This document shows positions 3,192 to 29,976 of a stretch of DNA of 64,000 nucleotides, piece after piece. The notes under the pieces were generated by a model. That model was not told the DNA's origin. It saw only the letters and a program-made list of their open reading frames with translations, and made no database searches. A program made the position numbers and the translations under genes. Location of the stretch: the NCBI RefSeq assembly GCF_029392895.1, contig NZ_CP114200.1, positions 4,929,001-4,993,000 of the forward strand. The letters run 5' to 3'. The stretch comes from Streptomyces sp. 71268. GTDB lineage: Bacteria > Actinomycetota > Actinomycetes > Streptomycetales > Streptomycetaceae. Numbering within the stretch: position 1 is the stretch's first letter; each line of letters opens with the position of its first letter.

Positions 3192-3328
3192 TGCGGGCTC
3201 CCCCTCCCGTTGGTGGTGGTCGTGACGGTGCCCCGGCGGCGCGGCGCGGGCCGGCCGGCGCGGTGTTCCCCCGGGCCGGGGTTCCGGTCCCGCGCGCCGG
3301 GTCCGTGCTGCGCGGTGCGGCGCTCGGA

Positions 3329-3396
3329 GCGGTTGGCTTACTGGCAGCGATCATGCCAAAGCCGGAGCGGTTGTCCCACCCCTGTAGGCCAACCGC
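3329..3396. promoter_or_regulatory. Candidate operator/promoter region of the PfkB-aldolase genes
   Basis: Two inverted repeats lie 140-200 bp upstream of the kinase start. GCGGTTGGC at 3329-3337 is mirrored by GCCAACCGC at 3388-3396, and TGGCA at 3342-3346 is mirrored by TGCCA at 3354-3358. They sit between the nagA terminator and the kinase, where a regulator would be expected. I do not recognise the motif. Confidence 0.3.
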
Positions 3397-3491
3397 GCGG
3401 CTTCGACGCGTTATGAGCCGTTGTCGACGCATTCCGCCTGCCTGTCGCGCGGATTCGTCCCGCTCCGCGGGGACGGGGAGCGGGGAGCGCG

Positions 3492-3530
3492 GGAGCGGGG
3501 CCGCGGCCGGCTGCGCCGTGGCCCCGCTCC
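3492..3530 (-). terminator. Hairpin terminator after nagA
   Basis: A 16-bp stem (3492-3507 with 3515-3530, one G-T pair) around a 7-nt loop, 70 bp past the nagA stop. There is no clear T-run, which is common for actinobacterial hairpins. It separates nagKA from the PfkB-aldolase pair. Confidence 0.6.
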
Positions 3531-3599
3531 GGTGTCGTCGCCCGTGGCGGGCGTGGTGCGCGTCCTCGGCCGGGGGGTGGTCGGCCGACGGCGCCGGTG

Positions 3600-5710: not shown

Positions 5711-5738
5711 GCGGGACAGTCTCGCGCGATTCCCCACT

Positions 5739-5754
5739 AGAGGTCTAGGCCACT
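5739..5754. promoter_or_regulatory. DasR-responsive element (dre) upstream of nagK
   Basis: The 16-mer AGAGGTCTAGGCCACT matches the Streptomyces dre consensus A(C/G)TGGTCTAGACCA(C/G)T at 14 of 16 positions. It lies 29 bp upstream of the nagK start, where it can block the promoter. DasR is the GntR-family GlcNAc repressor released by glucosamine-6-phosphate (established in S. coelicolor). Confidence 0.85.
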
Positions 5755-6271
5755 TCGCCCTCGCGGAGTGTCGTGCCCTGTCGCCGCACGGGTTATCGGC
5801 CGCGCGGGGGCCGTCGGAGGCCGTGCCCGAATGGTGTCCGTTCGGGCCCGGGCGGGCACCGAACCGGGCAGCGGCGGGCGGCCCGAACACCCCACCGGAC
5901 AACGGGTGCCGCGCGCCGCGCGCGGCGCCGACGGGCCACGGTTCGGCGCGGCTCGGCGTCGGTGGCGCGCGCGGGGCCGGCGACGCCGCCGTGAACGGCG
6001 ACCGGCGTACGGGCTGAGCGGCGGCGACCGGTAAACGATCTGTGAGACCGCACACGGTCGCGCGACCGGGCGCCGGAATGGCCCGGAAATCACCCCGTAT
6101 GAGGCGCGGGTGTGGCCGGCTTCGGGTGGGGATGGCCCTCCGCGCCGAAGGGGGTCGTGCTTAGTCTGAGCGGGTTCGGCGGCGCCGCGGTGGAGCGGCG
6201 CGTTCCGGGCCGGCCATAGCTGATGTGGGTGACGCGGAAGTGGCCACAGGTGATACCGAAGCGAGACCAGG

Positions 6272-6287
6272 TGTGGTGTAGACCTTA
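6272..6287. promoter_or_regulatory. Second, weaker dre-like site upstream of the sugar-binding lipoprotein gene
   Basis: TGTGGTGTAGACCTTA keeps the TGGT-n-TAGACC core of the dre palindrome (11 of 16 overall) and lies 30 bp upstream of the GTG at 6317. The position fits control of the divergent sugar-binding protein by the same DasR regulator. Confidence 0.55.
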
Positions 6288-6316
6288 GGGGGGTTGCGGG
6301 GGGAGACTCGCAACTC

Positions 6317-7660
6317 GTGTCGGAGAGTGACACTCCGGCAGATTCCGGGAAACAGAGCAGAGCACGAGGGTGGGTACCGGTTGTGCAGCGGCGGCGGTTC
6401 TTGAGTCTGACGGCAGCGGGTGCCGCGACGGCGGCGGTGACTCCGACGCTCGCCGCCTGCGGTGCCGGCTCGGGCTCCAGTGACGTACGGCTCAAGCTCG
6501 TCGCGGCGGACTACGGAGACACCAGCACCAACAGCTCCCTGAACTACTGGGGCGACCTGGCCCGCGCGTTCGAGACCAAGCACGGCAACATCAAGATCGA
6601 CGTCAACGTCTTCGGCTGGGCCGACATCGACAAGAAGGTCGCCCAGATGATCGAGAGCGGCGACACCCCGGACCTCGTCCAGTTCGGCACGTACGCGGAC
6701 TTCGCCGCCAAGGGCATGCTCTACCGCGCCGACCAGATCCTCTCCATCCGCACCCAGGCGTCCTTCCCGTCCGCCATCACGCAGGCGGGCGAGGTCAAGC
6801 GGGTGCAGTACGCGATGCCGTTCGGCGCCAGCACCCGGCTGCTCTTCTACAACAAGAAGCTGTTCAGCGAGGCGGGCGTCCTCAAGCCGCCGACCGACTG
6901 GGACGAGCTCCAGGCCGCGGCCGAGAAGCTCAAGGCCATCGACGTGAAGTACCCGTACGCGCTGCCGCTCGGCCGCGAGGAGGCCCAGGCCGAGACGTTG
7001 ATCTGGCTGCTCAGCGGCGGTGGCGGCTACACCGACGGGTACGGCAGCTACATGCTCGACTCGCCGGAGAACGTCGAGACGCTGGAGTGGCTGCGCGACG
7101 AACTCGTCGGCAAGGGCCTCACGGGCCCCACCGCGCCCGGCAAGCTCAACCGCCAGGACGCCTTCAACGCCTTCACCCGGGGCGAGGTCGGCATGCTCAA
7201 CGGCCACCCGACGCTGATGCAGCAGGTGGTCGGGCACCGCATCGAGTACGACGTCGCCCCGCTGCCGGGGCGCGACGGCCCCTCGGCGACCACGATGGGC
7301 GTGGCCGACTGGATGATGGCGTTCAAGAAGAACGGCCACCGCAAGGAGATAGGCGAGTTCCTCGACTTCGTCTACAGCGAGCCGAACGTCGTGGCGTTCG
7401 CGTCGAAGTACCGGCTGCTGCCGGTCACCACCGAGGCGTCCGACACGATGCGCCGCAACGACGAGTACAAGAGCCTCTGGCAGTTCCTCGACGGCCTGGA
7501 GACCGCGCAGTTCTACCCGTTCGACAAGACGTCCTGGGCCAAGGTCAACCAGAAGCTGCGGGACTCGGTGGGCACCATGGTCGCCAAGGGCGGCGACCCG
7601 TCGACCGCGCTCGGCGAGATCCAGCGCGCGGCCGACGCCACGGAGAACGAGGAACGTTAG
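6317..7660 (+). CDS. Extracellular sugar-binding lipoprotein of an ABC importer (Tat-exported)
   Basis: 447 residues from the GTG at 6317; an in-frame GTG at 6383 would start it directly at the signal peptide. The leader VQRRRFLSL is a twin-arginine motif followed by a hydrophobic stretch and the lipobox LAAC (Cys near residue 52), so the mature protein is lipid-anchored on the outer face of the membrane. The rest matches family 1 solute-binding proteins (for example a conserved ADWMMAFKKNGH region near residue 330). No permease or ATPase genes adjoin it; Streptomyces sugar importers often share the MsiK ATPase. Its position opposite nagKA and a dre-like site suggest an amino-sugar ligand, but this is inference. 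Confidence 0.85.
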   Translation: MSESDTPADSGKQSRARGWVPVVQRRRFLSLTAAGAATAAVTPTLAACGAGSGSSDVRLKLVAADYGDTSTNSSLNYWGDLARAFETKHGNIKIDVNVFGWADIDKKVAQMIESGDTPDLVQFGTYADFAAKGMLYRADQILSIRTQASFPSAITQAGEVKRVQYAMPFGASTRLLFYNKKLFSEAGVLKPPTDWDELQAAAEKLKAIDVKYPYALPLGREEAQAETLIWLLSGGGGYTDGYGSYMLDSPENVETLEWLRDELVGKGLTGPTAPGKLNRQDAFNAFTRGEVGMLNGHPTLMQQVVGHRIEYDVAPLPGRDGPSATTMGVADWMMAFKKNGHRKEIGEFLDFVYSEPNVVAFASKYRLLPVTTEASDTMRRNDEYKSLWQFLDGLETAQFYPFDKTSWAKVNQKLRDSVGTMVAKGGDPSTALGEIQRAADATENEER

Positions 7661-7669
7661 GTTGGCGGC

Positions 7670-8095
7670 GTGACACACCCCGCCGAGCCCGGCCCCCCAC
7701 CCACCGGCGGCGACCCGACCAACGGCGACCCGGCCCACGGCGACCTGGCCGCCGGTGGCCCGACCCCCGGCGGTCCCGCTGAGGGAGCGCCCGCCGCCGA
7801 GCCCGAGCCCGAGCCGGTCTCCGACGCCGAGCCCGGGCCGGCCGCCGCCGACGATGACCCCGCCGAGCAGGGCGAACTCTCCGCGCGGGACGTGGCCGTG
7901 CTGGCGCTGGAGCGTCGCGGCTGGTCGGGGCCCGGCGCGAAGGAGCGGGCGATCCGCGAGCGCCTCGGCATGTCGCCGACCCGCTACTACCAGGTGCTCA
8001 ACGCCCTCCTCGACGACCCGCGCGCCCTGCGGCACGACCCGGTGACCGTCCACCGGCTGCGGCGCCTGCGCGCCGCCCGCCGCTCCCGCCGCTGA
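7670..8095 (+). CDS. DUF3263 family protein (small HTH-like)
   Basis: 141 residues. The first 65 are a Pro/Gly/Ala/Glu low-complexity tail. The rest is the DUF3263 module (SARDVAVLALERRGW, then IRERLGMSPTRYYQVLN and a basic C-terminus). The second half reads like a helix-turn-helix with recognition helix SPTRYYQVLN, so a DNA-binding role is plausible but unproven. The GTG at 7670 starts 9 bp after the lipoprotein stop, so the two are probably co-transcribed. Function is not known. Confidence 0.8.
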   Translation: MTHPAEPGPPPTGGDPTNGDPAHGDLAAGGPTPGGPAEGAPAAEPEPEPVSDAEPGPAAADDDPAEQGELSARDVAVLALERRGWSGPGAKERAIRERLGMSPTRYYQVLNALLDDPRALRHDPVTVHRLRRLRAARRSRR

Positions 8096-8250
8096 CGAAG
8101 GGGCGCCGGGCTCCACGCCGGCGCACCGGGTCAGCACCCGCGTACGGCCTCGGGTACGCCCCCGCGTACGACCAAGGCGAACGACCGCCCCGCCGCTGGC
8201 CGAAACCCGCCCCGGCGACGGCGCCGGGGCGCCCCGGTAAGGTCGGCCGC

Positions 8251-9081
8251 ATGGCCATTCCCGTCCCCTCCACCGCCGCGGGCCGTGACGGCCTCGCCGC
8301 GCTGCTCGCACGGCCCGAACGCGCCGTGATCGCTCTCGACTTCGACGGCACCCTCGCCGAGATCGTGCCCGACCCGGAGCAGGCCCGGGCCCACCCCGCG
8401 GCCGTGCCGGCGCTGGCCGCGCTCGCCCCGCTGGTCGGCACGGTCCTCGTGCTCACCGGCCGGCCGGCCGAGGTCGCGGTGGGCTACGGCGGGTTCGCCG
8501 GCGTGCCCGGCCTCGAACACCTGGTCGTGCTCGGCCACTACGGCGCCGAGCGCTGGGACGCCGCCACCGGCCAACTGCGCGCCCCCGAGCCACACCCGGG
8601 CGTGGCCGCCGCGCAGGGCGAGCTGGCCGAGGTGTTCACCCGGGCCGGCGCGGCCGACGGCACCTGGGTCGAGGACAAGGGCCGCGCCATCGCCGTACAC
8701 ACCCGCCGGGCCGCCGACCCGCAGGCCGCGTTCGAGGCGCTACGCGCCCCGCTCGCCGCGCTCGCCGACCGGCACGGCCTGATCGTCGAGCCGGGCCGAC
8801 TCGTCCTCGAACTGCGCCCGCCCGGCATGGACAAGGGCGTCGCGCTTGAGGAGTTCGTACGCGAGGTGGACGCGGAGGCCGTGCTGTACGCGGGGGACGA
8901 CCTCGGCGACATCGCGGCCTTCGAGGCGGTGGAACGGCGCAGGTCCAAGGGGCTGCCGGGGTTGCTCGTCGGCAGCGGGAGCGTCGAGGTCACCGCGTTG
9001 GCCGAGCGGGCCGACCTGGTCGTGGACGGCCCGCGTGGCGTGGTCGACCTGCTCTCGTCCCTGGCGCACGAGCTGCGCTGA
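8251..9081 (+). CDS. otsB: Trehalose-6-phosphate phosphatase
   Basis: 276 residues. HAD-superfamily phosphatase of the OtsB type, removing phosphate from trehalose 6-phosphate to give trehalose. Motif I is LDFDGTLAEI near residue 30 (nucleophile and acid Asp), motif II is VLTGRP, and motif IV is YAGDDLGDIAAFE near residue 215. It converges on otsA, which makes the substrate, with a shared hairpin between them. Trehalose is a stress and spore solute in streptomycetes. Confidence 0.93.
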   Translation: MAIPVPSTAAGRDGLAALLARPERAVIALDFDGTLAEIVPDPEQARAHPAAVPALAALAPLVGTVLVLTGRPAEVAVGYGGFAGVPGLEHLVVLGHYGAERWDAATGQLRAPEPHPGVAAAQGELAEVFTRAGAADGTWVEDKGRAIAVHTRRAADPQAAFEALRAPLAALADRHGLIVEPGRLVLELRPPGMDKGVALEEFVREVDAEAVLYAGDDLGDIAAFEAVERRRSKGLPGLLVGSGSVEVTALAERADLVVDGPRGVVDLLSSLAHELR

Positions 9082-9096
9082 GCACGCTCCGAGCGC

Positions 9097-9130
9097 GCTG
9101 AGCCGCCCCCGGTGTCGGGGGCGGCTCAGC
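9097..9130. terminator. Bidirectional hairpin terminator between otsB and otsA
   Basis: A perfect 15-bp stem (9097-9111 with 9116-9130) and a 4-nt GTGT loop, placed between two convergent genes. Confidence 0.85.
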
Positions 9131-9180
9131 GAGGCCGGTCGCGGCCGGCGGGCCGGCTTGCCCGTGGTGGGGCGGTGCGG

Positions 9181-10902
9181 TTAGGTCGCGCCCAGCGCGC
9201 GCAGCTGGGCCAGGAACCACTGCTTGGGCGGCAGCGCCGTGGCCGCCGCGGCCAGCCGCTTGGTCCGCTCGGCGCGCTCACCCGGGTCCATCGTCAGCGC
9301 CTCGTGCAGCGCGTCGGCCGTCGCCCGCACGTCGTACGGGTTGACCGTCACCGCGTCGTCACCCAGCTCGGCGTAGGCCCCCGCCTCGCGCGAGAGCACC
9401 AGCGCGCAGCCCGCGTCCGAGACCACCGGGACCTCCTTGGCGACCAGGTTCATGCCGTCCCTGATCGGGTTCACCAGGGCCACGTCGGCGATCCGGTACG
9501 CGGCGAGCGAGCGCGCGAAGTCGTCCTTGACGTGCAGCACCACCGGCCGCCAACCCGGCGTCCCGAACTCCTCGTTGATCGCGTCCGCGACCCGCTGGAC
9601 CTCCTGCGTGTACTCCCGGTACACCGCCAGGTCCTGCCGCGACGGGTAGGCGAAGGCGACGTGCACCACCCGCTCCCGCCACTCGGGACGGTCGGCGAGC
9701 AACCGCCGGTAGGCGAGCAGACCGCGCACGATGTTCTTGGACAACTCCGTGCGGTCCACCCGGACGATGACCTTCCGTCCGCCGCCCGCGTCCCGCGCCG
9801 ACTCACCCGCCCCGCCGTCGGCCGCCCCGCCGTCGGCCGGTGTGCCCTCGGCCGGTGTGGCCGTGGCGTCGGCGTCGCGGCCCTCGACCTGCGCGCGCAG
9901 CGCGGTGCGGCGCTCCACCACGTCGGCCGCGCGCGAGCGCTCGCGCAGGAACTCCGCGTCCGCGCCCAGGCCGTGCACCCCGAGGTGGGTCGTGCGCCCG
10001 TCGAGTTCGACCGTCAGCTCGCCCGATGCCGCGTCCCGTCCGACGCGCGCGCCGAGCACCCGGGCGCAGCAGTCCGCGAACGCCTCGGCCCAGCGCTCGG
10101 TCAGGAACCCGGCCCGGTCGCCGCCGAGGATGCCGCGCAACACGGCGTCGGCGACGTCGTCCGGCAGCATCCGGAAGTAGTCCGGCGGCGCCCACGGCGT
10201 GTGCGAGAAGTGCCCGATGCGCAGGTCGGGGCGGCGCTCGCGGAGCAGCGCCGGGACCAGCGACAGGTGGTAGTCCTGCACCAGGACGGCCGCCCCCGGC
10301 GCGGCCTCGCGCGCGAGCGCGTCAGCGAAGGCGGCGTTGTACGTCTCGTACGCCTCCCACTCGCGTCGGAAGTCCGCGTCGAACGCCGGCTCCAGCGGGG
10401 TCTGGTACAGCAGGTGGTGGACGAACCAGAGGACCGAGTTGGCGATGCCGTTGTACGCCGCGGCGAAGACCTCGGGCGCGATGTCCAGCATCCGCACCCG
10501 CTGCCCGCCGGTGTCGTCCGTGTCGAGCAGCGCCCCGGCCGGGCCGCCCGCCTCCCGCTGGCCGTCGGCCCCGGCGCGGGCCGCGGCCTGGCGCACCGCC
10601 TCCCGGTCGCCTTCGCCGAGCGCGGCGCACACCCACACCGCCCGCGCGTCCGCGCCGATCGCGGAGAGGCCGGAGACCAGCCCGCCGCCGCCGCGCTTGG
10701 CGGTCAGCGCGGGCGGCTCGGCCGGTTCGGCGGCGCCCGCGTCGTCGGACGTCGGTGTTCGCGATGGCGAACGGGAGGGTGGCGGCGTCAGGGCGTACGA
10801 GACCGGCCCGCGGTTCGACGCGACCAGCACCTGGGCACCGGGCCCGGGGGCGGCGTCGCGCGCGGGTTCGGCGGCGTCCTGCTCGGAGTGCTCGGAGACC
10901 AT
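9181..10902 (-). CDS. otsA: Trehalose-6-phosphate synthase (GT20)
   Basis: 573 residues, about 100 longer than typical OtsA. It joins UDP- or GDP-glucose to glucose-6-phosphate. Family features are VASNRGPVSY at the N-terminus, VQDYHLSLVP, GHFSHTPWAPPDYFRMLP, RVDRTELSKNI (sugar-nucleotide site), and NPIRDGMNLVAKE followed by LVLSREAGAY near the C-terminus. The extra length comes from Thr/Pro/Ala/Glu-rich tracts, one near residues 25-45 and one near 350-380 (ADGGAADGGAGES), both probably surface loops. The ATG at 10902 is the only convincing start. Pairs functionally with otsB. Confidence 0.93.
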   Translation of the reverse strand: MVSEHSEQDAAEPARDAAPGPGAQVLVASNRGPVSYALTPPPSRSPSRTPTSDDAGAAEPAEPPALTAKRGGGGLVSGLSAIGADARAVWVCAALGEGDREAVRQAAARAGADGQREAGGPAGALLDTDDTGGQRVRMLDIAPEVFAAAYNGIANSVLWFVHHLLYQTPLEPAFDADFRREWEAYETYNAAFADALAREAAPGAAVLVQDYHLSLVPALLRERRPDLRIGHFSHTPWAPPDYFRMLPDDVADAVLRGILGGDRAGFLTERWAEAFADCCARVLGARVGRDAASGELTVELDGRTTHLGVHGLGADAEFLRERSRAADVVERRTALRAQVEGRDADATATPAEGTPADGGAADGGAGESARDAGGGRKVIVRVDRTELSKNIVRGLLAYRRLLADRPEWRERVVHVAFAYPSRQDLAVYREYTQEVQRVADAINEEFGTPGWRPVVLHVKDDFARSLAAYRIADVALVNPIRDGMNLVAKEVPVVSDAGCALVLSREAGAYAELGDDAVTVNPYDVRATADALHEALTMDPGERAERTKRLAAAATALPPKQWFLAQLRALGAT

Positions 10903-11066
10903 GTGCCGAGCCTAGCCAGCACCGGAACCGCTCAAACGTACGGACCTGATCCGCCCCACCCGCCCGGCCGGTCGCCCGCCACCCACCCGGGCCCCGTCCG
11001 CCCCGTGCACGCCGTCCGTCTCGCCCGCCTCGTGTGCCTCCGTACGACGGCGCTCCGCCGGTCCCG

Positions 11067-12044
11067 CTACGCCGCCCAGCGCTCCGCGTACTCCCGGACC
11101 TCGATCATCGGCGGGCGTTCCTCGGTGTCCACCGGGTGCGTCCGCGGCTCGAACCCGCCGCCGGCGCCGCGCGTGAACTGGGTGAGCCGTGGGCGTACCA
11201 AGTGGCCCCGGGCGAGCCGTAGTTGGGCCGTGCGGTAGATCGCCGCCGCCATCCGGCCGAGGGCCTGGCCGTCCTGGTGGCGGTGGCGGCGTACGCCCAC
11301 GTCCACCTGGCCGAGCGCGTCGAGCCCGACCGTGTGCAGCGCGTCGACGAGCAGGCCCAGCTCCACGCCGTAGCCGACCGGGAACGGCAGCCGCTCAAGC
11401 AGTGAACGGCGCGCCGCGTACTCGCCGCCGAGCGGCTGTACGAACCCCGCGAGCTGCGGCCAGTGCAGGTTCAGCAGCGGCCGGGCCACCAGCTCGGTCA
11501 CCCGGCCGCCCTGCCCGACGGGCCCGGCGCCGGCCTCGGCCCCGCGCGCCGCCGGTTCGAGCGGCCGGTCGTACATGGCCTTCACGAACTGCGTCTCCGG
11601 GTCGGTGAGCAGCGGGCCGACGATCCCGGAGACGAAGGTGGCGGAGAAGTCGCGCAGGTCGGCGTCGACGAAGCAGACGATGTCGCCGCTGGTCGCGAGC
11701 AGCGAACGCCACAGCACCTCGCCCTTGCCCGGGACCGCCGGCACCCGGGGCAGCAGGCTGTCCCGGTGCACCACGCGCGCGCCGGCCGCGCGCGCGACCT
11801 CGGCGGTGGCGTCCGTCGAGCCGGAGTCGAGCACCACCAGCTCGTCCACCAACGGGACCGCCCGCATGAGGTCGCGCCGGATCGTGTCGACGATCGCCCC
11901 GACCGTCGCCTCCTCGTTCAGCGCGGGCAGCACCACGCTGACGCTGCTGCCACCGGCCCGTTTCGCCGCGAGGAGCAGGTCGAGCGGACGGTCGGCAGCG
12001 GACCAGGACCGGCGACTGAGCCAGCGCTCCACCTCTTCCAGCAC
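11067..12044 (-). CDS. gpgS: Glucosyl-3-phosphoglycerate synthase (GT81)
   Basis: 325 residues. GT-A fold glycosyltransferase matching GpgS, which moves glucose from a nucleotide sugar to 3-phosphoglycerate, the first step to glucosylglycerate. Seen: VVLPALNEEATVG (UDP binding), VLDSGSTDATAEVA, CFVDADLRDF (metal-binding DxD), a central GEYAARRSLLERLPF acceptor region and VGVRRHRHQD. The GTG at 12044 is preceded by an AGGAG-like site. No matching phosphatase (GpgP) adjoins it, but otsA/otsB lie next door, so the block is a compatible-solute cluster. Confidence 0.9.
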   Translation of the reverse strand: MLEEVERWLSRRSWSAADRPLDLLLAAKRAGGSSVSVVLPALNEEATVGAIVDTIRRDLMRAVPLVDELVVLDSGSTDATAEVARAAGARVVHRDSLLPRVPAVPGKGEVLWRSLLATSGDIVCFVDADLRDFSATFVSGIVGPLLTDPETQFVKAMYDRPLEPAARGAEAGAGPVGQGGRVTELVARPLLNLHWPQLAGFVQPLGGEYAARRSLLERLPFPVGYGVELGLLVDALHTVGLDALGQVDVGVRRHRHQDGQALGRMAAAIYRTAQLRLARGHLVRPRLTQFTRGAGGGFEPRTHPVDTEERPPMIEVREYAERWAA

Positions 12045-12220
12045 CTGCGTGACTCCTTTGCGCGCCGAGCGGCGCTCGATGTTACGTTCATCTCGTGGTT
12101 TGGACGACCCTCACCCGGGTCCCAGCCTTCGGTTACAGTCTTGAACAACGCGGATGACCGTCGCATGCCGGGGTCATCACGCCAACAAACGCCTGGCTCC
12201 AAGGAGCCGGTGCCATACCG

Positions 12221-12356
12221 CTCATCCAGAGGGGCAGAGGGATACGGCCCGTTGAAGCCCCGGCAACCCTCCAGTCGGTTTCTCGCACAGCGAGGCTCCC
12301 GGCGGGGAAGGTGCCAATTCCGTCTCGTGGCGAGATGCGTCGCGAGGAAGATGAGG
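12221..12356 (+). ncRNA. SAM-I (S-box) riboswitch
   Basis: The P1 helix is closed by CTCATC at 12221-12226 and GATGAG at 12350-12355. Inside are the S-box landmarks in order: CAGAGGG, GGCCC-n-TTGAA, CCCCGGCAACC and GGTGCCAATTCC. The element ends about 20 nt before the ATG of the threonine-synthase-like gene, so in the SAM-bound form it can mask the ribosome site or terminate. SAM-I elements normally repress methionine synthesis or uptake genes. Confidence 0.93.
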
Positions 12357-12374
12357 AGAAAGGGCCTCGCCTCC

Positions 12375-13688
12375 ATGGCTGTGCAAGTCACCGAAAGCAC
12401 CACCGCCCCCGCCACGTCGGACGCGTCCGCCGCGTCCGTGGACCTCGGCCCCGCTGCCGCGCTCTCCTGTCGCGAGTGCGGCGAGCGCTTCGATCTCGGC
12501 CCGATCTTCGCCTGTGCGCTGTGTTTCGGCCCCCTTGAGGTGGCGTACGACCTGCCGACCGGTGACCCGCAGGGGCTGCGGCAGCGCATCGAGGCCGGCC
12601 CGAACAGCATCTGGCGGTACGCGCCGCTGCTGCCGGTGCCCGCCGACGTCGCGTCCAAGCCCAACCTGAACCCGGGCCTGACGCCGCTGGTCAAGGCCGA
12701 CCGGCTGGCCGGCGAGCTGGGCGTCACCGGCGGGCTGTACGTCAAGGACGACTCGGGCAACCCGACCCACTCCTTCAAGGACCGGGTCGTGGCCATCGCC
12801 GTCGAGGCCGCCCGCGCCTTCGGCTTCACCACCCTCTCCTGCTCCTCGACCGGCAACCTGGCCGGCGCGGTCGGCGCCGCCGCCGCCCGCGCGGGCTTCC
12901 GTTCCTGCGTGTTCATCCCGCACGACCTGGAGGCCGGCAAGGTCGTCATGGCCGCGGTCTACGGCGGCGAACTGGTCGCCATCGAGGGCACGTACGACGA
13001 CGTCAACCGGTTCTGCAGCGAGTTGATCGGCGACTCGCTCGGCGAGGGCTGGGGCTTCGTCAACGTCAACCTGCGCCCGTACTACGGCGAGGGCTCCAAG
13101 ACGCTGGCGTACGAGATCTGCGAGCAGCTCGGTTGGGAGATCCCGGACCAGATCGTCATCCCGATCGCCTCCGGATCGCAGCTCACGAAGATCGACAAGG
13201 GGCTCAAGGAGCTGATCAAGCTCGGCCTGGTCGAGGACAAGCCGTACAAGATCTTCGGCGCGCAGGCCGAGGGCTGCTCGCCGGTCTCCCGGGCCTTCAA
13301 GGACGGGCACGACGTGGTGCGCCCGGTGAAGCCGAACACCATCGCCAAGTCGCTGGCCATCGGGAACCCGGCCGACGGCCCGTACGTGCTCGACATCGCC
13401 CGGCGCACCGGGGGAGCGGTCGAGGACGTGACCGACGAGCAGGTGGTGGACGCCATCAAGCTGCTCGCGCGCACCGAGGGCATCTTCGCGGAGACCGCGG
13501 GCGGCGTGACCGTCGGCGTCACCAGGAAGCTCATCGAGACCGGCCAGCTGGACCCGACCCGCACCACCGTCGTCCTCAACACCGGCGACGGGCTCAAGAC
13601 GCTGGACGCCGTCGCGCCCACCACCGGGCCCACCGCGACGATCAAGCCGAGCCTCGACGCGTTCCGCGCGGCGGGTCTGGCGGGCTGA
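12375..13688 (+). CDS. thrC: Threonine-synthase-family PLP enzyme, possibly an O-phosphohomoserine sulfhydrylase
   Basis: 437 residues. A short N-terminal zinc-ribbon-like region (CRECG, then CALC) leads into a fold-type II PLP enzyme. The PLP lysine is in NPTHSFKDRVV, the phosphate-binding loop region is SSTGNLAGAVGA, and SGSQLTKIDKG and VLNTGDGLKTLD follow. By homology it makes threonine from O-phosphohomoserine. Two context signals argue otherwise: a SAM riboswitch directly upstream, and a ThiS/MoaD-like sulfur carrier directly downstream. I infer it may instead use a thiocarboxylate or sulfide donor to make homocysteine; I recall a report of such a MetM activity in Streptomyces but cannot verify it here. 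The ATG at 12375 is chosen because the frame further upstream runs through the riboswitch. Confidence 0.85.
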   Translation: MAVQVTESTTAPATSDASAASVDLGPAAALSCRECGERFDLGPIFACALCFGPLEVAYDLPTGDPQGLRQRIEAGPNSIWRYAPLLPVPADVASKPNLNPGLTPLVKADRLAGELGVTGGLYVKDDSGNPTHSFKDRVVAIAVEAARAFGFTTLSCSSTGNLAGAVGAAAARAGFRSCVFIPHDLEAGKVVMAAVYGGELVAIEGTYDDVNRFCSELIGDSLGEGWGFVNVNLRPYYGEGSKTLAYEICEQLGWEIPDQIVIPIASGSQLTKIDKGLKELIKLGLVEDKPYKIFGAQAEGCSPVSRAFKDGHDVVRPVKPNTIAKSLAIGNPADGPYVLDIARRTGGAVEDVTDEQVVDAIKLLARTEGIFAETAGGVTVGVTRKLIETGQLDPTRTTVVLNTGDGLKTLDAVAPTTGPTATIKPSLDAFRAAGLAG

Positions 13689-23432: not shown

Positions 23433-23578
23433 GGCGCCCCTCGACCCGGGACCGCCATGGGCCGGAGCGGCGCGGTAGGAACTGAGGCGCGCGTGGGCGC
23501 GGGCAGGGCGTCTCGCGCCCACGCGCGTGGCGTCATGCGACGGCAGGCGCGGCCGGGTCGCGTGCCTACCGGTGTGAC

Positions 23579-23847
23579 TCAGCCGACCGCGTCCACGAAC
23601 CCCATCCTCTGGTTCATCGCGATCGCGCTCACGTTGGCCGGGTGGTGGACTGTACGGACCGTGGGCAGCCCACGCTCCCGGACGAAGGCCATGCCGTACG
23701 TCTTCATGGCCAGCGAGACGCCCCGCCCCCCGGTAGGCGGCGCGCACCCCGGTCATCTCGTTCATCGCGAACGTGCTGTGCCGCGAGGTCGCGGCCATCC
23801 CCAACGCCGCCACGTCGAGTTCGAGCCGCACCCAGTGATCGGCCACG
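23579..23847 (-). pseudogene. Frameshifted GNAT acetyltransferase remnant
   Basis: Reading the minus strand from GTG at 23847 gives ADHWVRLELDVAALGMA and FAMNEMTGVRAAYRG. At a G-run (about 23738-23750) the frame must shift by one base to continue as VSLAMKTYGMAFVRERG and NVSAIAMNQRMGFVDAVG, ending at the TGA at 23581-23579. Together these make a GNAT acetyltransferase C-terminal half with the acetyl-CoA loop RGxG disrupted by one extra G. The N-terminal half is missing. I read this as a decayed gene, unless the G-run is a sequencing error. Confidence 0.75.
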
Positions 23848-23932
23848 CTTACCCCTCCGCTCCCCGTCGCGAGCCCGGACGCCTGTGTGCTCGGTGGGGC
23901 CATCCTCGGGGATGGTGGTGGTGGGGACAAGA

Positions 23933-24400
23933 TCACGCTCTAGAGATGGCGCTCTGTAGGCGAGCGACCCCCGGCCCGTCGCAAGCCAGAATGGTGCGGA
24001 ACCGCGCCTGAGTGCTTCCGTCGACTCGTTCTACTTGTGACCACTCCTGCCCCGTCCGCAGCAGCATGGCGAGAAACTCGGGCACTGCTTCGGGCTCGTC
24101 GACCAACAACTCGTGGGCTTCTTCGATCACGAGCACGTAGTGTTCTGCGGGCAGCCAGGAAAGGTCACGCAAGCAGTCGTTGAGTGCGGGAAAATTCCAG
24201 CCGAAGTAATCCGGCAGTTTGAAATCGTCAAAGAATTGCATAAGGAGGCCGTCCGAGTCTCGCATGCGGCGCCCGCTCAGCCAAGCGGTAAAGGTGAGGC
24301 CGGGCGACGGGAGGAGCTGCCGAACTGACGCGCGGGCGTCCGAGCTGATAATGCGCAGCCAGGGCTCGACACCGAGCCAAGGGTCATGATCAGTCACCAT
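23933..24400 (-). CDS. Barstar-family immunity protein (ribonuclease inhibitor)
   Basis: 155 residues from the ATG at 24400. The core (FFDDFKLPDYFGWNFPALND, then SWLPAEHYVLVIEEAHELL) matches barstar, whose helix and loop with acidic residues plug the active site of barnase-type ribonucleases. Its ATG overlaps the stop of the rhs gene (ATGGTGA), so toxin and antidote are translated together. The matching toxin domain is at the end of that gene. Base composition is visibly less GC-rich than the core genome, fitting transfer with the toxin tip. Confidence 0.92.
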   Translation of the reverse strand: MVTDHDPWLGVEPWLRIISSDARASVRQLLPSPGLTFTAWLSGRRMRDSDGLLMQFFDDFKLPDYFGWNFPALNDCLRDLSWLPAEHYVLVIEEAHELLVDEPEAVPEFLAMLLRTGQEWSQVERVDGSTQARFRTILACDGPGVARLQSAISRA

Positions 24401-27400
24401 TGAGGGCTTTCTACTACGATATACGTCTGATAATGCGTCGGAGTATAATATACGGAGCCGTCGCTGCCCCATACTGTTCTTTCCCCGCCCGGCTTCGGAT
24501 TGTCACTTGCCGCGGGTGCGCCATATTCGCGATAAGTGATCGGATTTCCTGTCGGGTCGGTTCGTGGAAGTACGTGGGCTCCCCCCTTGCCGTCATTAGC
24601 GAAGGGCTTCATGGTGAGGTTGGGGCCGTGCCATTGGGCTCCCCAGCCTGTGGCTTCCCGCCCGTACTTTTTGACGTCTTGAATAGAGCTCATCGCCTCG
24701 TCGGGCACGCGGCTCGGTATCCACCCGCCGAGCCTGCTTGTATCTCCGAGTTGAGTACCTGGCGCAGGACTGGACGTGGGACAGGGGCCGAGCCCTAAGG
24801 GGTCCATCCAAGTGAGTGGATTGTGGACATACGACAGAGGGTTGGGTGCCGCCTCCAACCCCAGCGGATCAGGGCTCGCATACCGCCCGGTCTCCGGGTC
24901 GTAGTGGCGGAAGTAGTTGTAGTGCAGGCCCGTTTCCGGGTCGGCGTACTGGCCCGGGAAGCGGAGGGGGCAGTCGAGGTCCTGGGCGTGGGGCGGGGTG
25001 GGTAAGGGGGTGCCCCACAGGGTGGTGCGGGGGGTCCAGGCCAGGGTGCCGGTCGGGGTGACGAGTTCCTGTGGGGTGCCGACCAGGTCGGTGACGATGG
25101 CGTGGAAGCGGGTGTCGGTCTGGGTGAGGACCTGGCTGAGTGGCTCGGGTGGGGCGGGGGTGTGGTCGGTCTGGGTGAGCGGGCGGTGGGTGGCGGGGGC
25201 GTAGTCCCAGGTGGTGGCCGCTCCCGTGGTCGCGTCGCCGATCGCGACCTGCTCCGCCAGCCGGGTGCCGTCCCAGGAGAACCGGAGCTCCTCCGCGACC
25301 TGTTCGCCGTCACCCCCCAGGCGCTGCTTGGTGGCGCGGCGGCCCAGCGGGTCGTAGGTGTAGCGCCATCGGGTGCCCTCCGGGGTGACCGCGGCGGTGA
25401 GGTGGTCCTCCGAGTCCCAGGTGTAGGTCCAGGTGCGGCGTTGGCCGTTGAGGAGGCGGCGGGTGCGGCGGGTGAGCCGGCCCTGGGCGTCGTGTTCGTA
25501 CGTGGTCCGGCCCGCGCGGTGGATCAGGGTTCCGGTGAACTCGCGCTCGCCGGTGGAGGGGTGGTCAGGTGCGGTCGCGTCGGTGATGTTGCCCGCGCTG
25601 TCGTACGCGTAGCGCTCCGTCCAACCGTGTGCGTGGACCGCTGTGGCGCGTCCTGCCCGGTCCAGGTCGAAGCGACGCGTGCCCGTGGTGAGGTCGCGGA
25701 TCTCGGTGAGTTGGTCGTCGGCACGGTAGGCGTACTCGCGGTGTTGGAGGAGGACGTCCGCCGCGGCCCCCGACCGGTGAGTCAATCGTTGGCTGTTGAG
25801 CCGGTCGAGCTCGTCCCAGCGTTGGGTGAGGGTGACGTCCTCGCCGAGGGCGCGCGAGATCTCGCGTCCTGCCGCGTCGTGCGCGAAGCGCAGTTCGTGA
25901 CCGGCCGTGGTGAGCGTGGCGGGACGTTGCGCCGCGTCGTACGTCCACCGCGAGACCAGCCCTGACGGGGTGGTACGCGAGGCGCGACGGCCCGCCGCGT
26001 CGTAGGCGTAGCGCGTCGTACGCTCGTTGACCGTCTCGGTCAGGAGTCGGCCTGCCGCGTCGTAGCTTCGACGCAGGTCCGTGTCCGCGTTCCGGGCGCG
26101 CAGGAGTCGGCCACTCGCGTCGTAGGTGTACGTGACGCCGGGGCGATCACCGTCCGGGTGCGCCGCGACGGTGCGGCCCAGTGCGTCCCGCACGTAGCGG
26201 ATCGTCTCCCCGGCTCCGTTGGCGCGTGCCGTGAGTCGTCCCGCCGCGTCGTGTGTGTACGAGGTGCGACGGCCGTTGAAGTCCGTCTCCGTCGTCAGGC
26301 GGCCGGCCGCGTCGTAGGCGTAGGTCCACGTCCGACCTTGGGGGTTGGTGACGGACGTCAGGCGTAGCTCGGTGTCGTAGGCGAAGGCGTATCGCGCGCC
26401 GTCGGCGGTGGTGTGGGTAGCGGGCAGGTCGAAGTGGGTGTGGGTGTGTCGGGTGGTGTGGCCCGCGGTGTCGGTGTGCTCAGTGAGGTTGCCCTCGGCG
26501 TCCCAGGTCCAGGATTCGCGTGTCCCGTCGGGCCGTTCGCGCCAGGAGAGCTTGCCTTCGATGGTCCAGCCTTGGCGGGTGGTGTGCCCAAGGGGGTCGG
26601 TGATGGCGGTGACGCGGCCGTGGGTGGCGCGGCGCAGGGTGGTGGTGTGGCCCGGCGGGTCGGTGATCTCCACGGGGAGGCCGGCGGCGTTGGTTCTCAG
26701 ACGGGTGGTGTGGCCGAGGGGGTCACTGACGCTGGCGAGGTGTCCGGTCTCCTCGTCGTACGTGTAGTGGGTCCGGGCCCCCGTCGGGTCCGTGGTCGTG
26801 AGGCGGTTGCCGTGGGCGTCGTACGTGTGCCGCCACAGCGCGCCGTCCGGCTCGCGCACCTCGACCGGTAACCCGAAAGCGTCGTACGTGGCGGTGGCGG
26901 TGCTGCCGTCCGGCCGCTCGACCTTGATGAGACGGTCGTCCTCGTCGTACGCGTACCGGGTGGTGTGGCCGAGCGCGTCGGTGACCGCCAAGGGCCGGTG
27001 CGGGCGGTCGGGGTGCCACTGGGTGCGGCGCGTGTGCCCGAGTGGGTCGGTCTCCGCCACCACCTTGTACGTCTCGTCGTAGACGTAGGTCGTCTCGTAG
27101 CCGAGCGAGTCCGTGTAGGTGGTGGTGCGCCGGGCGCTGTCGTAGTGCAGCCGACCGGTCATCATGTCGCCGCTGCCGATGGTGCGCAGCACGCGGCCCC
27201 GTCGGTCGTAGACATAACCGAATCGGGTCCCGTTGCGGTCGGTCCAGGAGGTGATGCGGTGGTCGGTGTCGTAGGTGAACCGCAGGGCCTCGCCGCTGGA
27301 GTTGATCACGTCGGTCAGGTTGCCGGCGGCGTCGTAGCCGTAGGAGACGAGTGTCGTGCCCGCCGTCGTCGCGCCCACGCCGAGGAGGCGGAGGGCGGTG

Positions 27401-29040
27401 ATACGCGGTGGTCCCGAACCGGCTCCCGTCCCTGGTTCTTCTCCCGTCGGGAGAGCCCCCGTCTGCCGAGGGGCGCGGTCATGCCGGTCGGCTCCGACGC
27501 CGGAGCCGTCCTCATGGCCGACGGAGGCCGCGCCGGGGCTGGTGTCCACCGCTATCCGGTAGCCACCGGAGTGCGTGACCTCCGTGGGCGTGCCCTGCGC
27601 GTCGTACGTGAACGTGATCGTGTCGCCGTTGTGGTCGCAGACGCTGACCAGGGGCAGTTCCGTGGGCTCCAGGCCCGGCAACGGAGCGAAGTACAGGGTT
27701 CGGTCACGCTCTGGTTGGGCCAGCCGCATGGTGCCGCCCGCCGTGCCGTCCCAGTACAGGGGCCAGCGGCGCCCGCCCTCCGGGTAAGTGTCCTCGTCGG
27801 GCGTGGGAACCGGGTAGCGCAGCACCATCCCGTCGTCGGCCACGAAGACGACGCCGTCACCGTCCAACTCCAGTCGCTGGTCCAGCGTGGCGGCCCAGGT
27901 CCGACCGAACCACCCGCCGCAGGGGTGGCCGGAAACGAAGGCACGCTGAAGCACCAGTGGAAGCGCGCCCGGCAGGGACACGTCCACGGCCGACATGACC
28001 ATCTCGCCCGTGGCCACGTCGATGGGCTCGCCGCACGTCGCCTTCTCGGGACCGCACTGGCGCTGGGTGCCCTCGCCGTCGGCGCGCTCCCGCGCCGCGC
28101 CGTCCCGACCCAGCTCCGCCTTGCGACGGTTGAGCCGCGTCGCCGCGTCCCGGCCCGACTTCATGGCGTCGCGCAACACACTGCCGCCGCCGGTGGCGAT
28201 GGCCAACACCACGGAGGGTGCCAGGCTGCCCATCGCCCGGTAGGGATGGTCACTCCACTCGTCCCAGTTGGCCGCCGCCTTCAGGAAGCCCTGTGGGTCC
28301 TTGGCCGCGTAGACCGCCCCGTCGGTGATCTGCGCCAACTGCATGGCGATGGCCTTCTCATCACCGGTGACGAAGGGCACGGCCAACTCGGCCATGCCGT
28401 TGATGGCGTGGTGGGCGCTCCACAGCGCCTCCTTGAGGTTCTCCTTCGCCGACTGGAACCCGCTCGGCTTGTCCGGTGCCTTCTCCGCCGCGGTGTCGAT
28501 CTTCTTCTTCACGGCGTCGACGACCGGCTGCAGCTCCGCCCTGAGCGCCTCCAGACGCCGTACGCACCCCTCCATCGCGGTGATACCCGGGTTGGTGTCG
28601 GGCGGGCGCTCCGGAAGCGTCTCGTCCTCGCGCTCGATCGCCGCGTTGTAGTCGGCGACCCGCCGGTCGTGCCGCTTGGCGTCCGCGCGCGCGGTGTCGG
28701 CCGCCTCGATGATGGGCAGGCACCGCTTCTGCACGGTACGGAGCTTGACCGCGTACGCGGCCAAGGCGCTGGCCGCGTCGGTGAACCGGTCCCGGGCCGA
28801 CGTCAACTCCTTGGGGAGCCGGTCCACCGCCTTGCGGAAGGCTCCCGCGCCCTTGCCCTGCCAGTCGGCCAGGTGCAACGGACCCAGACGGTCGTGCCCG
28901 TCGCGAAACGCGCCCGCGTACGCGCGTAACTCCGCGACCAGCGAGTCGACGTCATCCGGCTCGCCCGGTATGAGGTCCTTGGCCGTGCAGCCCTCCGGGA
29001 TGGCGGGCCGGGCCGGGTTCCACCGCTCTGGCTCAGCCAT
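24394..29040 (-). CDS. Rhs/YD-repeat polymorphic toxin with barnase-type ribonuclease tip
   Basis: 1548 residues. Residues 1-130 form a helical WXG100-like export domain (LADWQGKGAGAF), suggesting type VII-linked secretion. Near residue 336 begins a DUF6531-like module (CGEPIDVATGEMVMS). Residues about 450-1390 are dozens of YD repeats (TYDAAGRL-type) that would build the Rhs shell. The core ends DPETGRYASPDPLGL and NPLTWMDPLGLGPCP. The last 112 residues are a barnase/RNase-Sa-like domain: ITYREYG (Glu1505), GGERTVWGSD (Arg1521) and THYQTYIVV (His1536) match the barnase triad Glu73, Arg87, His102 with near-equal spacing. It overlaps the ESX-like gene upstream by one base and barstar downstream by seven. 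Confidence 0.94.
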   Translation of the reverse strand: MAEPERWNPARPAIPEGCTAKDLIPGEPDDVDSLVAELRAYAGAFRDGHDRLGPLHLADWQGKGAGAFRKAVDRLPKELTSARDRFTDAASALAAYAVKLRTVQKRCLPIIEAADTARADAKRHDRRVADYNAAIEREDETLPERPPDTNPGITAMEGCVRRLEALRAELQPVVDAVKKKIDTAAEKAPDKPSGFQSAKENLKEALWSAHHAINGMAELAVPFVTGDEKAIAMQLAQITDGAVYAAKDPQGFLKAAANWDEWSDHPYRAMGSLAPSVVLAIATGGGSVLRDAMKSGRDAATRLNRRKAELGRDGAARERADGEGTQRQCGPEKATCGEPIDVATGEMVMSAVDVSLPGALPLVLQRAFVSGHPCGGWFGRTWAATLDQRLELDGDGVVFVADDGMVLRYPVPTPDEDTYPEGGRRWPLYWDGTAGGTMRLAQPERDRTLYFAPLPGLEPTELPLVSVCDHNGDTITFTYDAQGTPTEVTHSGGYRIAVDTSPGAASVGHEDGSGVGADRHDRAPRQTGALPTGEEPGTGAGSGPPRITALRLLGVGATTAGTTLVSYGYDAAGNLTDVINSSGEALRFTYDTDHRITSWTDRNGTRFGYVYDRRGRVLRTIGSGDMMTGRLHYDSARRTTTYTDSLGYETTYVYDETYKVVAETDPLGHTRRTQWHPDRPHRPLAVTDALGHTTRYAYDEDDRLIKVERPDGSTATATYDAFGLPVEVREPDGALWRHTYDAHGNRLTTTDPTGARTHYTYDEETGHLASVSDPLGHTTRLRTNAAGLPVEITDPPGHTTTLRRATHGRVTAITDPLGHTTRQGWTIEGKLSWRERPDGTRESWTWDAEGNLTEHTDTAGHTTRHTHTHFDLPATHTTADGARYAFAYDTELRLTSVTNPQGRTWTYAYDAAGRLTTETDFNGRRTSYTHDAAGRLTARANGAGETIRYVRDALGRTVAAHPDGDRPGVTYTYDASGRLLRARNADTDLRRSYDAAGRLLTETVNERTTRYAYDAAGRRASRTTPSGLVSRWTYDAAQRPATLTTAGHELRFAHDAAGREISRALGEDVTLTQRWDELDRLNSQRLTHRSGAAADVLLQHREYAYRADDQLTEIRDLTTGTRRFDLDRAGRATAVHAHGWTERYAYDSAGNITDATAPDHPSTGEREFTGTLIHRAGRTTYEHDAQGRLTRRTRRLLNGQRRTWTYTWDSEDHLTAAVTPEGTRWRYTYDPLGRRATKQRLGGDGEQVAEELRFSWDGTRLAEQVAIGDATTGAATTWDYAPATHRPLTQTDHTPAPPEPLSQVLTQTDTRFHAIVTDLVGTPQELVTPTGTLAWTPRTTLWGTPLPTPPHAQDLDCPLRFPGQYADPETGLHYNYFRHYDPETGRYASPDPLGLEAAPNPLSYVHNPLTWMDPLGLGPCPTSSPAPGTQLGDTSRLGGWIPSRVPDEAMSSIQDVKKYGREATGWGAQWHGPNLTMKPFANDGKGGAHVLPRTDPTGNPITYREYGAPAASDNPKPGGERTVWGSDGSVYYTPTHYQTYIVVESPQW

Positions 29041-29528
29041 CAGTCCTCATCCACGAAGTCCTGAAACTTCTTCCAGTGGCCGCTCTCACCGGGCCGTGGG
29101 TCCATCTCCGGAACGCCGTACTTCTTCGCCGCCCAGGTGCTCGCGTCACCGATCGGCAACTTGGCGATGTTCGCGTCCGAGGGCCAGAAGTTCTCCACCT
29201 GAAGGATCTCGGCCAGCATGTACGCGGCGACCGCCTCGTACAGCCGATCCACCACCTCGTCCGCGTGCTCGGCGAGTTGCCGCATGCCAAAGCCCCATGA
29301 CGAGACGAACTCCTGCCCCGCGTGCAGGATCTCCGGCGCGCCGGCATGCCGCAGGTACCCGGTCAGCCGCTCCTCGTCGCGGCCCATCGCACGAGCCGCC
29401 GCCACCGACTCTTCCAGCGGCAGGATGAGCCCCTTCACCTGGGCGATCTCCAGCCGGTAGCCGACATCGCCCTCCCCGTCGCCGAGGTCCCGGTCGTGAT
29501 GGCCGTTCCACTCCTCGGGATCAGCCAC
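29040..29528 (-). CDS. WXG100/ESX-like partner of the Rhs toxin
   Basis: 162 residues, mostly helical, from the GTG at 29528. It contains FVSSWGFGMRQLAEHADEVVDRLYEAV (a WxG with following helix, about residues 74-100) and no signal peptide. Size and position fit the small adaptor/chaperone proteins encoded before type VII-exported toxins. Its start lies inside the 3' end of the SseB-like gene (8-bp overlap) and its TGA shares a base with the rhs ATG. Function inferred from context and helical pattern only. Confidence 0.65.
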   Translation of the reverse strand: MADPEEWNGHHDRDLGDGEGDVGYRLEIAQVKGLILPLEESVAAARAMGRDEERLTGYLRHAGAPEILHAGQEFVSSWGFGMRQLAEHADEVVDRLYEAVAAYMLAEILQVENFWPSDANIAKLPIGDASTWAAKKYGVPEMDPRPGESGHWKKFQDFVDED

Positions 29529-29976
29529 CGACCCCCTCCCGGTGCTCCGCGTTCAACCCACCGACGGAAGGCAGGGAACGATCGCTTCGCGTGGTGGACG
29601 CCGGTACCGCCTCTTCAGCGGCGTCCACGACCAGCGCGCGCAGCACCTCCCTGTCCAGGACGAATGGTTGTTCACCCAGCGGGTCCACCAACGCCCGCAC
29701 CCCGTCAGGAAGCAACCCCACCAGGTCCTCGACCGTGGTGGAGGCCCAGTCGCACGCCCCCGCGTACAGCGCCAGACCGGACACCGACGTGAACACCGCG
29801 ACCAGCGGGCCCTCGTCCGTCCGCGCCACCAGGAAACCAGGGGGCGCGGGCGGTCGTGGACGCTCGAAGTACAACCGGGTCGCCAGCAGGGCCGTTCGCC
29901 GGGCCGTCCGAGAAGCTTCACCCGCCGCGCTGTCCGACGCCAGATCCGCCAGCCGTAACCGGCCGTCACCGCTCAC
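29521..29976 (-). CDS. SseB-like protein at the head of the toxin operon
   Basis: 151 residues from the GTG at 29976. The middle (FLVARTDEGPLVAVFTSVSGLALYAG, LVDPLGEQPFVLD) matches the SseB N-terminal domain, a fold common beside WXG100 and Rhs genes in actinomycetes. It is the first gene of the overlapping set, 130 bp after the HelD-like gene, so the operon promoter probably lies in that gap. The exact role is unknown; a secretion adaptor or accessory immunity function is possible. Confidence 0.75.
   Translation of the reverse strand: MSGDGRLRLADLASDSAAGEASRTARRTALLATRLYFERPRPPAPPGFLVARTDEGPLVAVFTSVSGLALYAGACDWASTTVEDLVGLLPDGVRALVDPLGEQPFVLDREVLRALVVDAAEEAVPASTTRSDRSLPSVGGLNAEHREGVGG

What the first reader, a model, noticed from the sequence alone, without database searches (positions are those of the whole stretch)
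23933..29976. Complete overlapping operon for an Rhs toxin with a barnase tip and barstar antidote
Four genes overlap by 8, 1 and 7 bases: SseB-like, WXG100-like, Rhs, barstar. The last 112 residues of the Rhs protein carry Glu1505, Arg1521 and His1536 in the context and order of the barnase triad (spacing 16 and 15, against 14 and 15 in barnase), and the next gene is a barstar. Rhs toxins are known; this combination with an N-terminal WXG-like export domain and a coupled SseB-like gene makes a testable cell-contact or secreted RNase weapon of a streptomycete.
Basis: partly seen in the sequence, partly recalled or inferred. Interest (0 to 1): 0.8.

Follow-up and report, generated by a model that had tools for sequence, protein, structure and literature searches.

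The report
Streptomyces Rhs toxin with barnase-like tip
A Streptomyces genome carries a four-gene operon for a large, probably exported protein that ends in an RNA-cutting toxin tip, with the matching antidote encoded right behind it: an intact example of a known class of exchangeable bacterial weapons.

Summary
In detail: four minus-strand genes overlap by 8, 1 and 7 bases. The Rhs protein has a T7SS_signal domain, an Rhs core, a paired DPLGL motif and a 131-residue tip. The tip is a microbial RNase, nearer RNase Sa than barnase. Its PF00545 score (20.1 bits) is under the cut-off (24), but 13 of 13 Rhs tips, this one included, match that family, and a profile comparison with stand-alone RNases gives 98%. 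The next gene is a clear barstar; a barstar follows the tip in 14 of the 14 closest named-genome loci.

The sseB-like/small-gene/Rhs set recurs in Streptomyces with nine other tips that show no blastp similarity to each other. The barnase tip also rides on other Rhs carriers. Composition breaks at the tip junction. The operon sits between cutC and helD, which lie together without it in 9 of 9 relatives read.

It is a polymorphic toxin-immunity locus, probably type VII-exported (inferred), of a class described by Zhang et al. 2012. Gene 2 is not shown to be WXG100. Least known: what the two small genes do.

The parts
29521..29976 (-). SseB-like / T7SS-associated small gene (151 aa, GTG start)
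   Evidence: PF07179 (17 bits, cut-off 21) and NF033532 (24.6, cut-off 85) are sub-threshold for this sequence; 12 of 12 aligned members, window included, match both at E up to 0.01, best 5.2e-7 and 5.2e-8
29040..29528 (-). small gene 2 (162 aa, GTG start), conserved WGFGM motif; probable export partner of the Rhs protein (inferred), family unnamed
   Evidence: lies with an SseB-like gene in 11 of 11 and with Rhs in 10 of 11 other Streptomyces loci read; no Pfam family above cut-off, no PDB match better than E 2.2
24394..29040 (-). Rhs polymorphic toxin (1548 aa)
   Evidence: RHS_repeat 6.9e-94; Rhs_assc_core 5.9e-23
28465..28983 (-). T7SS_signal domain of the Rhs protein (residues 20-192) with invariant W60-x-G62
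   Evidence: PF21725 9.3e-23, 81.8 bits against cut-off 27; WxG in 12 of 12 rows
24856..28005 (-). DUF6531 and Rhs/YD core (residues about 346-1395), predicted cage
   Evidence: cage inferred from Rhs proteins elsewhere
24790..24870 (-). DPLGL-x17-DPLGL (residues 1391-1417), predicted self-cleavage site and junction where tips are exchanged
   Evidence: a DxxGL pair spaced 17 in 21 of 23 other loci checked, strict DPxGL at both sites in 19 of 23; GC3 and synonymous-change breaks here
24397..24789 (-). RNase tip (residues 1418-1548), microbial RNase family, RNase Sa-like
24526..24528 (-). E1505, predicted catalytic base (role recalled from RNase Sa/barnase)
   Evidence: 32 of 32
24478..24480 (-). 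R1521, predicted phosphate-binding arginine (role recalled)
   Evidence: 31 of 32
24433..24435 (-). H1536, predicted catalytic acid (role recalled)
   Evidence: 32 of 32
23933..24400 (-). barstar-family immunity protein (155 aa); D75 aligns with the second Asp of barstar's DxxxD helix (its role in binding barnase is recalled)
   Evidence: PF01337 4.2e-20; alignment to barstar chains; barstar next to the tip in 14 of 14 closest named loci

Best explanation
This is a polymorphic toxin-immunity operon. The Rhs protein is probably exported by the cell's own ESX/type VII system through its N-terminal T7SS_signal domain, with the small WGFGM protein as a partner and the SseB-like protein as an accessory (inferred). 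The Rhs core would form a cage around the tip and free it at the paired DPLGL motif (inferred from Rhs proteins studied elsewhere). The released 131-residue tip enters a competing, related bacterium and degrades RNA with a Glu-Arg-His microbial RNase active site (family and residues shown by comparison, activity inferred). The barstar made from the overlapping next gene protects the producer and its siblings by plugging that site (family shown, binding inferred). Tip and barstar form one exchangeable cassette, joined at the DPLGL motif.
For: Tip: 13 of 13 Rhs-borne tips, window included, match PF00545 and no other Pfam family at E up to 1. hhalign of Rhs tips only against stand-alone RNases only: 98.2%, 3.8e-14; two control alignments gave 0.13% and 0.04%. 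The stand-alone set matches solved RNases at 1.4e-29 (best) and RNase Sa at 1.5e-27. Model helix plus four strands, pLDDT 80.1. Antidote; 14 of 14 closest loci and 58 of 79 of all loci with a tip have a barstar match within 600 bases downstream; 15 of 17 stretches in the whole-genome set (at least four genomes are in both sets). Export: PF21725 well above cut-off, no hydrophobic stretch in the first 60 residues, ESX locus in the same genome with an FtsK/SpoIIIE-type ATPase, two WXG100 proteins, a subtilase, EccB and EccE. Exchange: same upstream set with nine other tips, best blastp E among the ten 0.33, one a colicin/pyocin DNase (1.8e-39); barnase tip on WXG100_2 and other carriers; GC3 falls from about 0.9 to 0.6 at residues 1389-1400; against G031 synonymous changes triple, best break after residue 1397. 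Insert: cutC and helD lie together without the operon in 9 of 9 relatives read.
Against: PF00545 is below its gathering score for this sequence, and Rhs tips alone reach PDB RNases only at E = 0.041, barnase at 0.41. The residues that Zhang et al. print for their Tox-Barnase row (H, H, [ST], FP, [STD]) are not this tip's Glu-Arg-His set. Their table also gives Imm-Barstar for Ntox21, so a barstar neighbour alone does not prove a barnase. The first Asp of barstar's DxxxD is Pro here (D in only 2 of 12 relatives; the second Asp is kept in 11 of 12). No activity, export or binding data exist. The ESX locus is about 2.9 Mb away; EccD was not seen among the eight proteins scanned there. In L047 the barnase tip rides on a frame whose first 487 residues hold no Pfam domain, so the tip alone does not imply type VII export. 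21 of 79 tip loci, 19 of them labelled Clostridia or Bacillota, show no barstar match at E 1e-3.
Confidence: 0.75

Rival explanations
1. Same toxin and antidote, but the protein leaves the cell by another route (cell lysis, Sec or an unrecognised path), and the two small genes are chaperones or regulators rather than type VII targeting factors.
For: The four genes include no secretion machinery; NF033532 and SseB matches of gene 1 are sub-threshold for this sequence; gene 2 has no family; L047 carries the barnase tip on a frame without a Pfam T7SS domain in its first 487 residues.
Against: PF21725 at 9.3e-23, invariant WxG in 12 of 12, ESX locus in the genome, no signal-peptide-like stretch.
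Confidence: 0.2
2. The operon works inside the producer, as a developmental or stress RNase held by barstar, rather than against competitors.
For: Five TTA codons (sseB codon 7; Rhs 38, 724, 1346, 1415), all shared with G031, suggest bldA-linked late expression (meaning of TTA recalled).
Against: Toxin-first order on a very large carrier with an export domain, and differing tips on the same carrier, fit between-cell conflict; TTA codons are absent from Rhs in 7 of 9 other such operons.
Confidence: 0.07
3. A decayed or silent locus.
For: It is an accessory insert: gene 2 matches in 17 of 295 genomes of the genus, some weakly, and cutC-helD lacks it in 9 of 9 relatives read; a broken acetyltransferase-like remnant lies beside it (by eye).
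Against: All four frames are open here and their counterparts in G031 align without a stop, with dN below dS in each (dN/dS: sseB 0.045/0.158, gene 2 0.008/0.095, Rhs 0.016/0.109, tip 0.015/0.402, barstar 0.054/0.530).
Confidence: 0.05

Closest known systems
Tox-Barnase / Imm-Barstar polymorphic toxins (Zhang et al. 2012, PMC3482391; passages seen)
   Same: barnase-fold RNase as toxin module, barstar as immunity protein, toxin-then-immunity order, Actinobacteria and T7SS (WXG) listed for Tox-Barnase, barnase cassettes inside larger polymorphic systems
   Different: the conserved residues printed in the Tox-Barnase row (H, H, [ST], FP, [STD]) are not this tip's Glu-Arg-His; SseB is not mentioned (0 occurrences in the 300,000 of 357,715 characters held)
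Secreted guanyl-specific RNases (Sa, Sa3 and 1py3) of the PDB, and barnase
   Same: same family profile and catalytic residues in register
   Different: those are free enzymes; here the RNase is the tip of a 1548-residue Rhs protein and has a different N-terminal lead-in
Rhs effectors of type VI systems (RhsA, RhsB of Enterobacter; one passage seen in PMC10763514)
   Same: Rhs cage, DPxGL motif before the tip, differing tips
   Different: Pfam shows no PAAR domain; the N-terminus is a T7SS_signal domain
LXG toxins of type VIIb with small targeting partners (Klein et al. 2024: seen only as a reference-list entry, paper not held; Lap names recalled)
   Same: small gene directly upstream of the toxin, immunity gene downstream
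   Different: ESX locus with EccB and EccE, Rhs carrier, partner without a recognised WXG family

Membership tests
Microbial ribonuclease (PF00545) | family profile match | tested here: inconclusive
   window tip 20.1 bits, cut-off 24; 13 of 13 Rhs tips match at E up to 1, best 3.5e-6; hhalign to stand-alone RNases 98.2%
Microbial ribonuclease (PF00545) | Glu, Arg, His catalytic residues in register | tested here: met
   E and H 32 of 32, R 31 of 32; aligned with solved RNases Sa by profile
Microbial ribonuclease (PF00545) | fold matched to a solved RNase | tested here: inconclusive
   model has H18-34 and four strands, pLDDT 80.1, but its alignment included stand-alone RNases; the Foldseek search was never accepted
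Barstar (PF01337) | family profile above cut-off | tested here: met
   71.9 bits against 23.4
Barstar (PF01337) | DxxxD on the binding helix (motif from PMC3482391) | tested here: inconclusive
   second Asp kept (D75; 11 of 12 aligned barstars), first is Pro here and D in 2 of 12
Barstar (PF01337) | binds and inhibits the RNase tip | not testable with these tools
   no complex prediction offered; needs binding assay
Polymorphic toxin system (Rhs) | Rhs core with exchangeable C-terminal tip and adjacent immunity gene | tested here: met
   immunity function itself not tested
Type VII (ESX) substrate | recognised T7SS N-terminal domain | tested here: met
   PF21725, a 'putative' signal domain by its own title; WxG invariant
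Type VII (ESX) substrate | secretion depends on ESX | not testable with these tools
   needs a deletion mutant
WXG100 protein (gene 2) | WXG100 profile and a conserved W-x-G | tested here: not met
   no WXG100 hit for this protein, 1 of 13 members at E 0.0078; conserved motif is WGFG; the WNG at residue 7 is not conserved. Its fold was not predicted
SseB family / NF033532 (gene 1) | family profile match | tested here: inconclusive
   below cut-off for this sequence (17 bits against 21; 24.6 against 85); 12 of 12 members match both at E up to 0.01

The most novel reading that the evidence does not exclude
The sseB-like gene and the WGFGM small gene are a dedicated two-protein adaptor that delivers Rhs-caged toxins of Streptomyces to the ESX type VII machine, an actinobacterial counterpart of the Lap targeting factors built from unrelated parts, and it would be a general loading device since it is kept while the tip changes.
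Probability: 0.4. Interest if true: 0.55.

Novelty: new member of a known kind. Interest (0 to 1): 0.35.

Why it matters
It gives an intact locus in which three things can be tested in a laboratory-friendly genus: whether Streptomyces use their ESX system as a weapon, how a cage-forming Rhs protein passes a type VII channel, and what the coupled SseB-like and WGFGM proteins do. The toxin and antidote chemistry itself is well known.

Tried and rejected
Gene 2 as a WXG100 protein: rejected on sequence; its fold could not be predicted. PDB match of Rhs tips without stand-alone RNases in the profile: weak (E 0.041), so the strong figure (7.9e-27) is partly built in, and I rest. The stand-alone RNases were themselves found by similarity to the tip alignment. 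The rise in synonymous change at the tip may partly reflect its lower GC3 and is not proof of recombination; the split at residue 1395 was set after the tip's high dS had been seen, while the best-break scan was free. An ORF at 23457-24011 (+) was dropped: no Pfam match. The TTA background is 27 window ORFs chosen for GC3 above 0.85, which favours few TTA codons (Fisher p = 3.2e-4). Of 12 strong gene-2 places outside the window and G031 (E below 1e-20), 11 were fetched; the twelfth lies at a contig end. In L146 the Rhs frame ends without a DPLGL tail, and its SseB-like match lies apart and holds a stop; in L150 no Rhs was found in the stretch; both are left out of the nine tips. Weak barstar matches in that set: L147 (E 0.003, not behind the tip) and L149 (E 0.002, 474-704 bases past the Rhs end). 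Barstar was missing in L036 and L038 of the 17 stretches; L038's tip match contains two stops. The 9 relatives were picked from the 24 same-genus ones; the matching helD search gave no answer.
Full report
What is there. The window lies at 4,929,001-4,993,000 of a single 8.38 Mb contig. The genus is Streptomyces: same-genus genome G049 has a contig of the same length, 10,677,137, as Streptomyces cyaneochromogenes NZ_CP034539.1. Four genes run on the minus strand: an SseB-like gene 29976-29521, a small gene 29528-29040, an Rhs gene 29040-24394 and a barstar gene 24400-23933, overlapping by 8, 1 and 7 bases. The Rhs protein has 1548 residues: T7SS_signal domain 20-192, DUF6531 337-409, Rhs repeats, Rhs-associated core 1353-1417, and the tip.

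The tip. Alone, the tip matches PF00545 at E 0.0009-0.0022 and 18.9-20.1 bits, under the cut-off of 24. Thirteen of 13 Rhs-borne tips (window included) match PF00545 and no other Pfam family. A profile of those 13 compared with a profile of 14 stand-alone RNases gives 98.2% and 3.8e-14; comparisons with the gene 2 and gene 1 alignments as controls give 0.13% and 0.04%. The stand-alone set matches solved RNases at 1.4e-29. With Rhs tips alone the PDB match is weak, E 0.041 for an RNase (1py3) and 0.41 for barnase. In a 32-row alignment Y1503, E1505, Y1532 and H1536 are invariant and R1521 is kept in 31. The AlphaFold2 model (pLDDT 80.1, pTM 0.77) has helix 18-34 and strands 74-78, 92-96, 101-104 and 111-115, the helix-then-four-strand-meander order that Zhang et al. 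give for this fold; E1505, R1521 and H1536 are model residues 76, 92 and 107. The alignment behind the model includes stand-alone RNases, which may guide it, and no structure search could be run.

The antidote. The next protein is a barstar (PF01337, 71.9 bits against 23.4). In 295 genomes of the genus, 18 have a tip match; of the 17 stretches other than the window, 15 have a barstar match next to the tip. Of barstar's DxxxD the second Asp is kept in 11 of 12 relatives and the first in 2 of 12.

Modularity. Gene 2 was sought in 295 genomes; 17 match, with 12 strong places outside the window and G031. Eleven were fetched: 11 of 11 have an SseB-like match, 10 of 11 the Rhs N-terminus and core, 9 a full tail behind the second motif. 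Those nine tips and the window's have no blastp match to each other better than E = 0.33; one is a colicin/pyocin DNase and eight have no Pfam match at E 0.01. Conversely, of nine Rhs N-termini with the barnase tip that were scanned, five are T7SS_signal (L028, L041, L043, L044, L046), three WXG100_2 (L024, L026, L049) and one without a match in its first 487 residues (L047). GC3 falls from about 0.9 to about 0.6 at residues 1389-1400, and GC of tip and barstar is 0.593 and 0.617 against 0.71 for the rest of Rhs. Against G031, 6.1% of codons 1-1395 but 19.6% of codons 1396-1548 differ synonymously (Fisher p = 1.4e-7), with the best single break after residue 1397. The tip-barstar pair thus looks like a cassette with its own history, though weaker codon bias could add to the difference.

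Setting. In 9 of 9 relatives whose cutC region was read, cutC and helD lie side by side (62 to 2,258 bases between matched ends, under 250 in six) with no match to the four genes; in the window and in G031 the operon fills the gap. So it is an accessory insert. The genome has an ESX locus at about 2.03-2.045 Mb with an FtsK/SpoIIIE-type ATPase (frame possibly cut by the stretch), two WXG100 proteins, a subtilase, EccB and EccE; EccD was not seen among the eight proteins scanned.

Mechanism. Shown: gene order, families, conserved catalytic residues, linkage to barstar, differing tips on one carrier type. Inferred: type VII export, caging, release at DPLGL (a DxxGL pair spaced 17 in 21 of 23 loci, strict DPxGL in 19; release by autoproteolysis is reported for a type VI Rhs protein, one passage seen in PMC10763514), entry into a competitor, RNA cleavage, neutralisation by barstar. 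How the tip crosses the target envelope is unknown.

What is known. Zhang et al. 2012 (PMC3482391; [quoted passage not shown] The residues they print for Tox-Barnase are not this tip's Glu-Arg-His, so this tip may belong to another barnase clade than the one in that row. Searches pairing Streptomyces or actinobacteria with Rhs, barnase, barstar, type VII secretion, SseB, WXG100 or YD repeat showed, in their listings, no paper on this operon or on the sseB-like plus small-gene pair; apart from passages of PMC3482391, PMC12691689 and PMC9990079 the listed papers were not opened, and the library lacks most subscription journals. Residue numbers of barnase and RNase Sa, residue roles, and the bldA reading of TTA codons are recalled.

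Verdict. It is a new member of a known kind. The open point worth a specialist's time is the pair of small genes that stays while the tip changes.

Noticed in passing
window 23933-29976: Five TTA codons in the operon (sseB codon 7; Rhs codons 38, 724, 1346, 1415), all kept in G031, against 1 in 12,062 codons of 27 other window ORFs picked for high GC3: predicted bldA-dependent, late expression. Not general: absent from Rhs in 7 of 9 other such operons.
   Followed up: partly
window 23433-23930: Between cutC and the barstar, a remnant on the minus strand that reads like pieces of a GNAT acetyltransferase in different frames (family by eye only, no search).
   Followed up: no
L034 (G072), about 7620-13439: Rhs N-terminus and core matches over their length, with pieces of a barnase-like tip in two short frames about 1.1 kb behind the core and a barstar match after it: looks like a displaced older cassette.
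   Followed up: partly
window against L163 (G031): Barstar is the most diverged gene of the operon between the two strains (89% aa, dS 0.53), although the tip is 97% identical in aa (dS 0.40).
   Followed up: partly
L025 / L040 (Streptomyces cyaneochromogenes): The Rhs N-terminus and the core-tip part lie in different overlapping frames, so the gene is broken there, while the barstar is kept.
   Followed up: no
L047 (Streptomyces phaeofaciens), 1740-8390: Barnase tip and barstar on a 2216-residue frame without a Pfam T7SS domain in its first 487 residues and with a hydrophobic stretch near its start (by eye), suggesting another export route.
   Followed up: no
L079 and L098 (Caballeronia, Burkholderia): Barnase-type tips at the end of frames of about 2,700 residues that run off the start of the stretch, each followed by a barstar match.
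   Followed up: no
window 12219-12357: SAM riboswitch, 80.1 bits.
   Followed up: no
G000 7,118,501-7,138,500 (L152): Two further places with weak Rhs-core similarity, in open frames of 205 and 889 aa.
   Followed up: no
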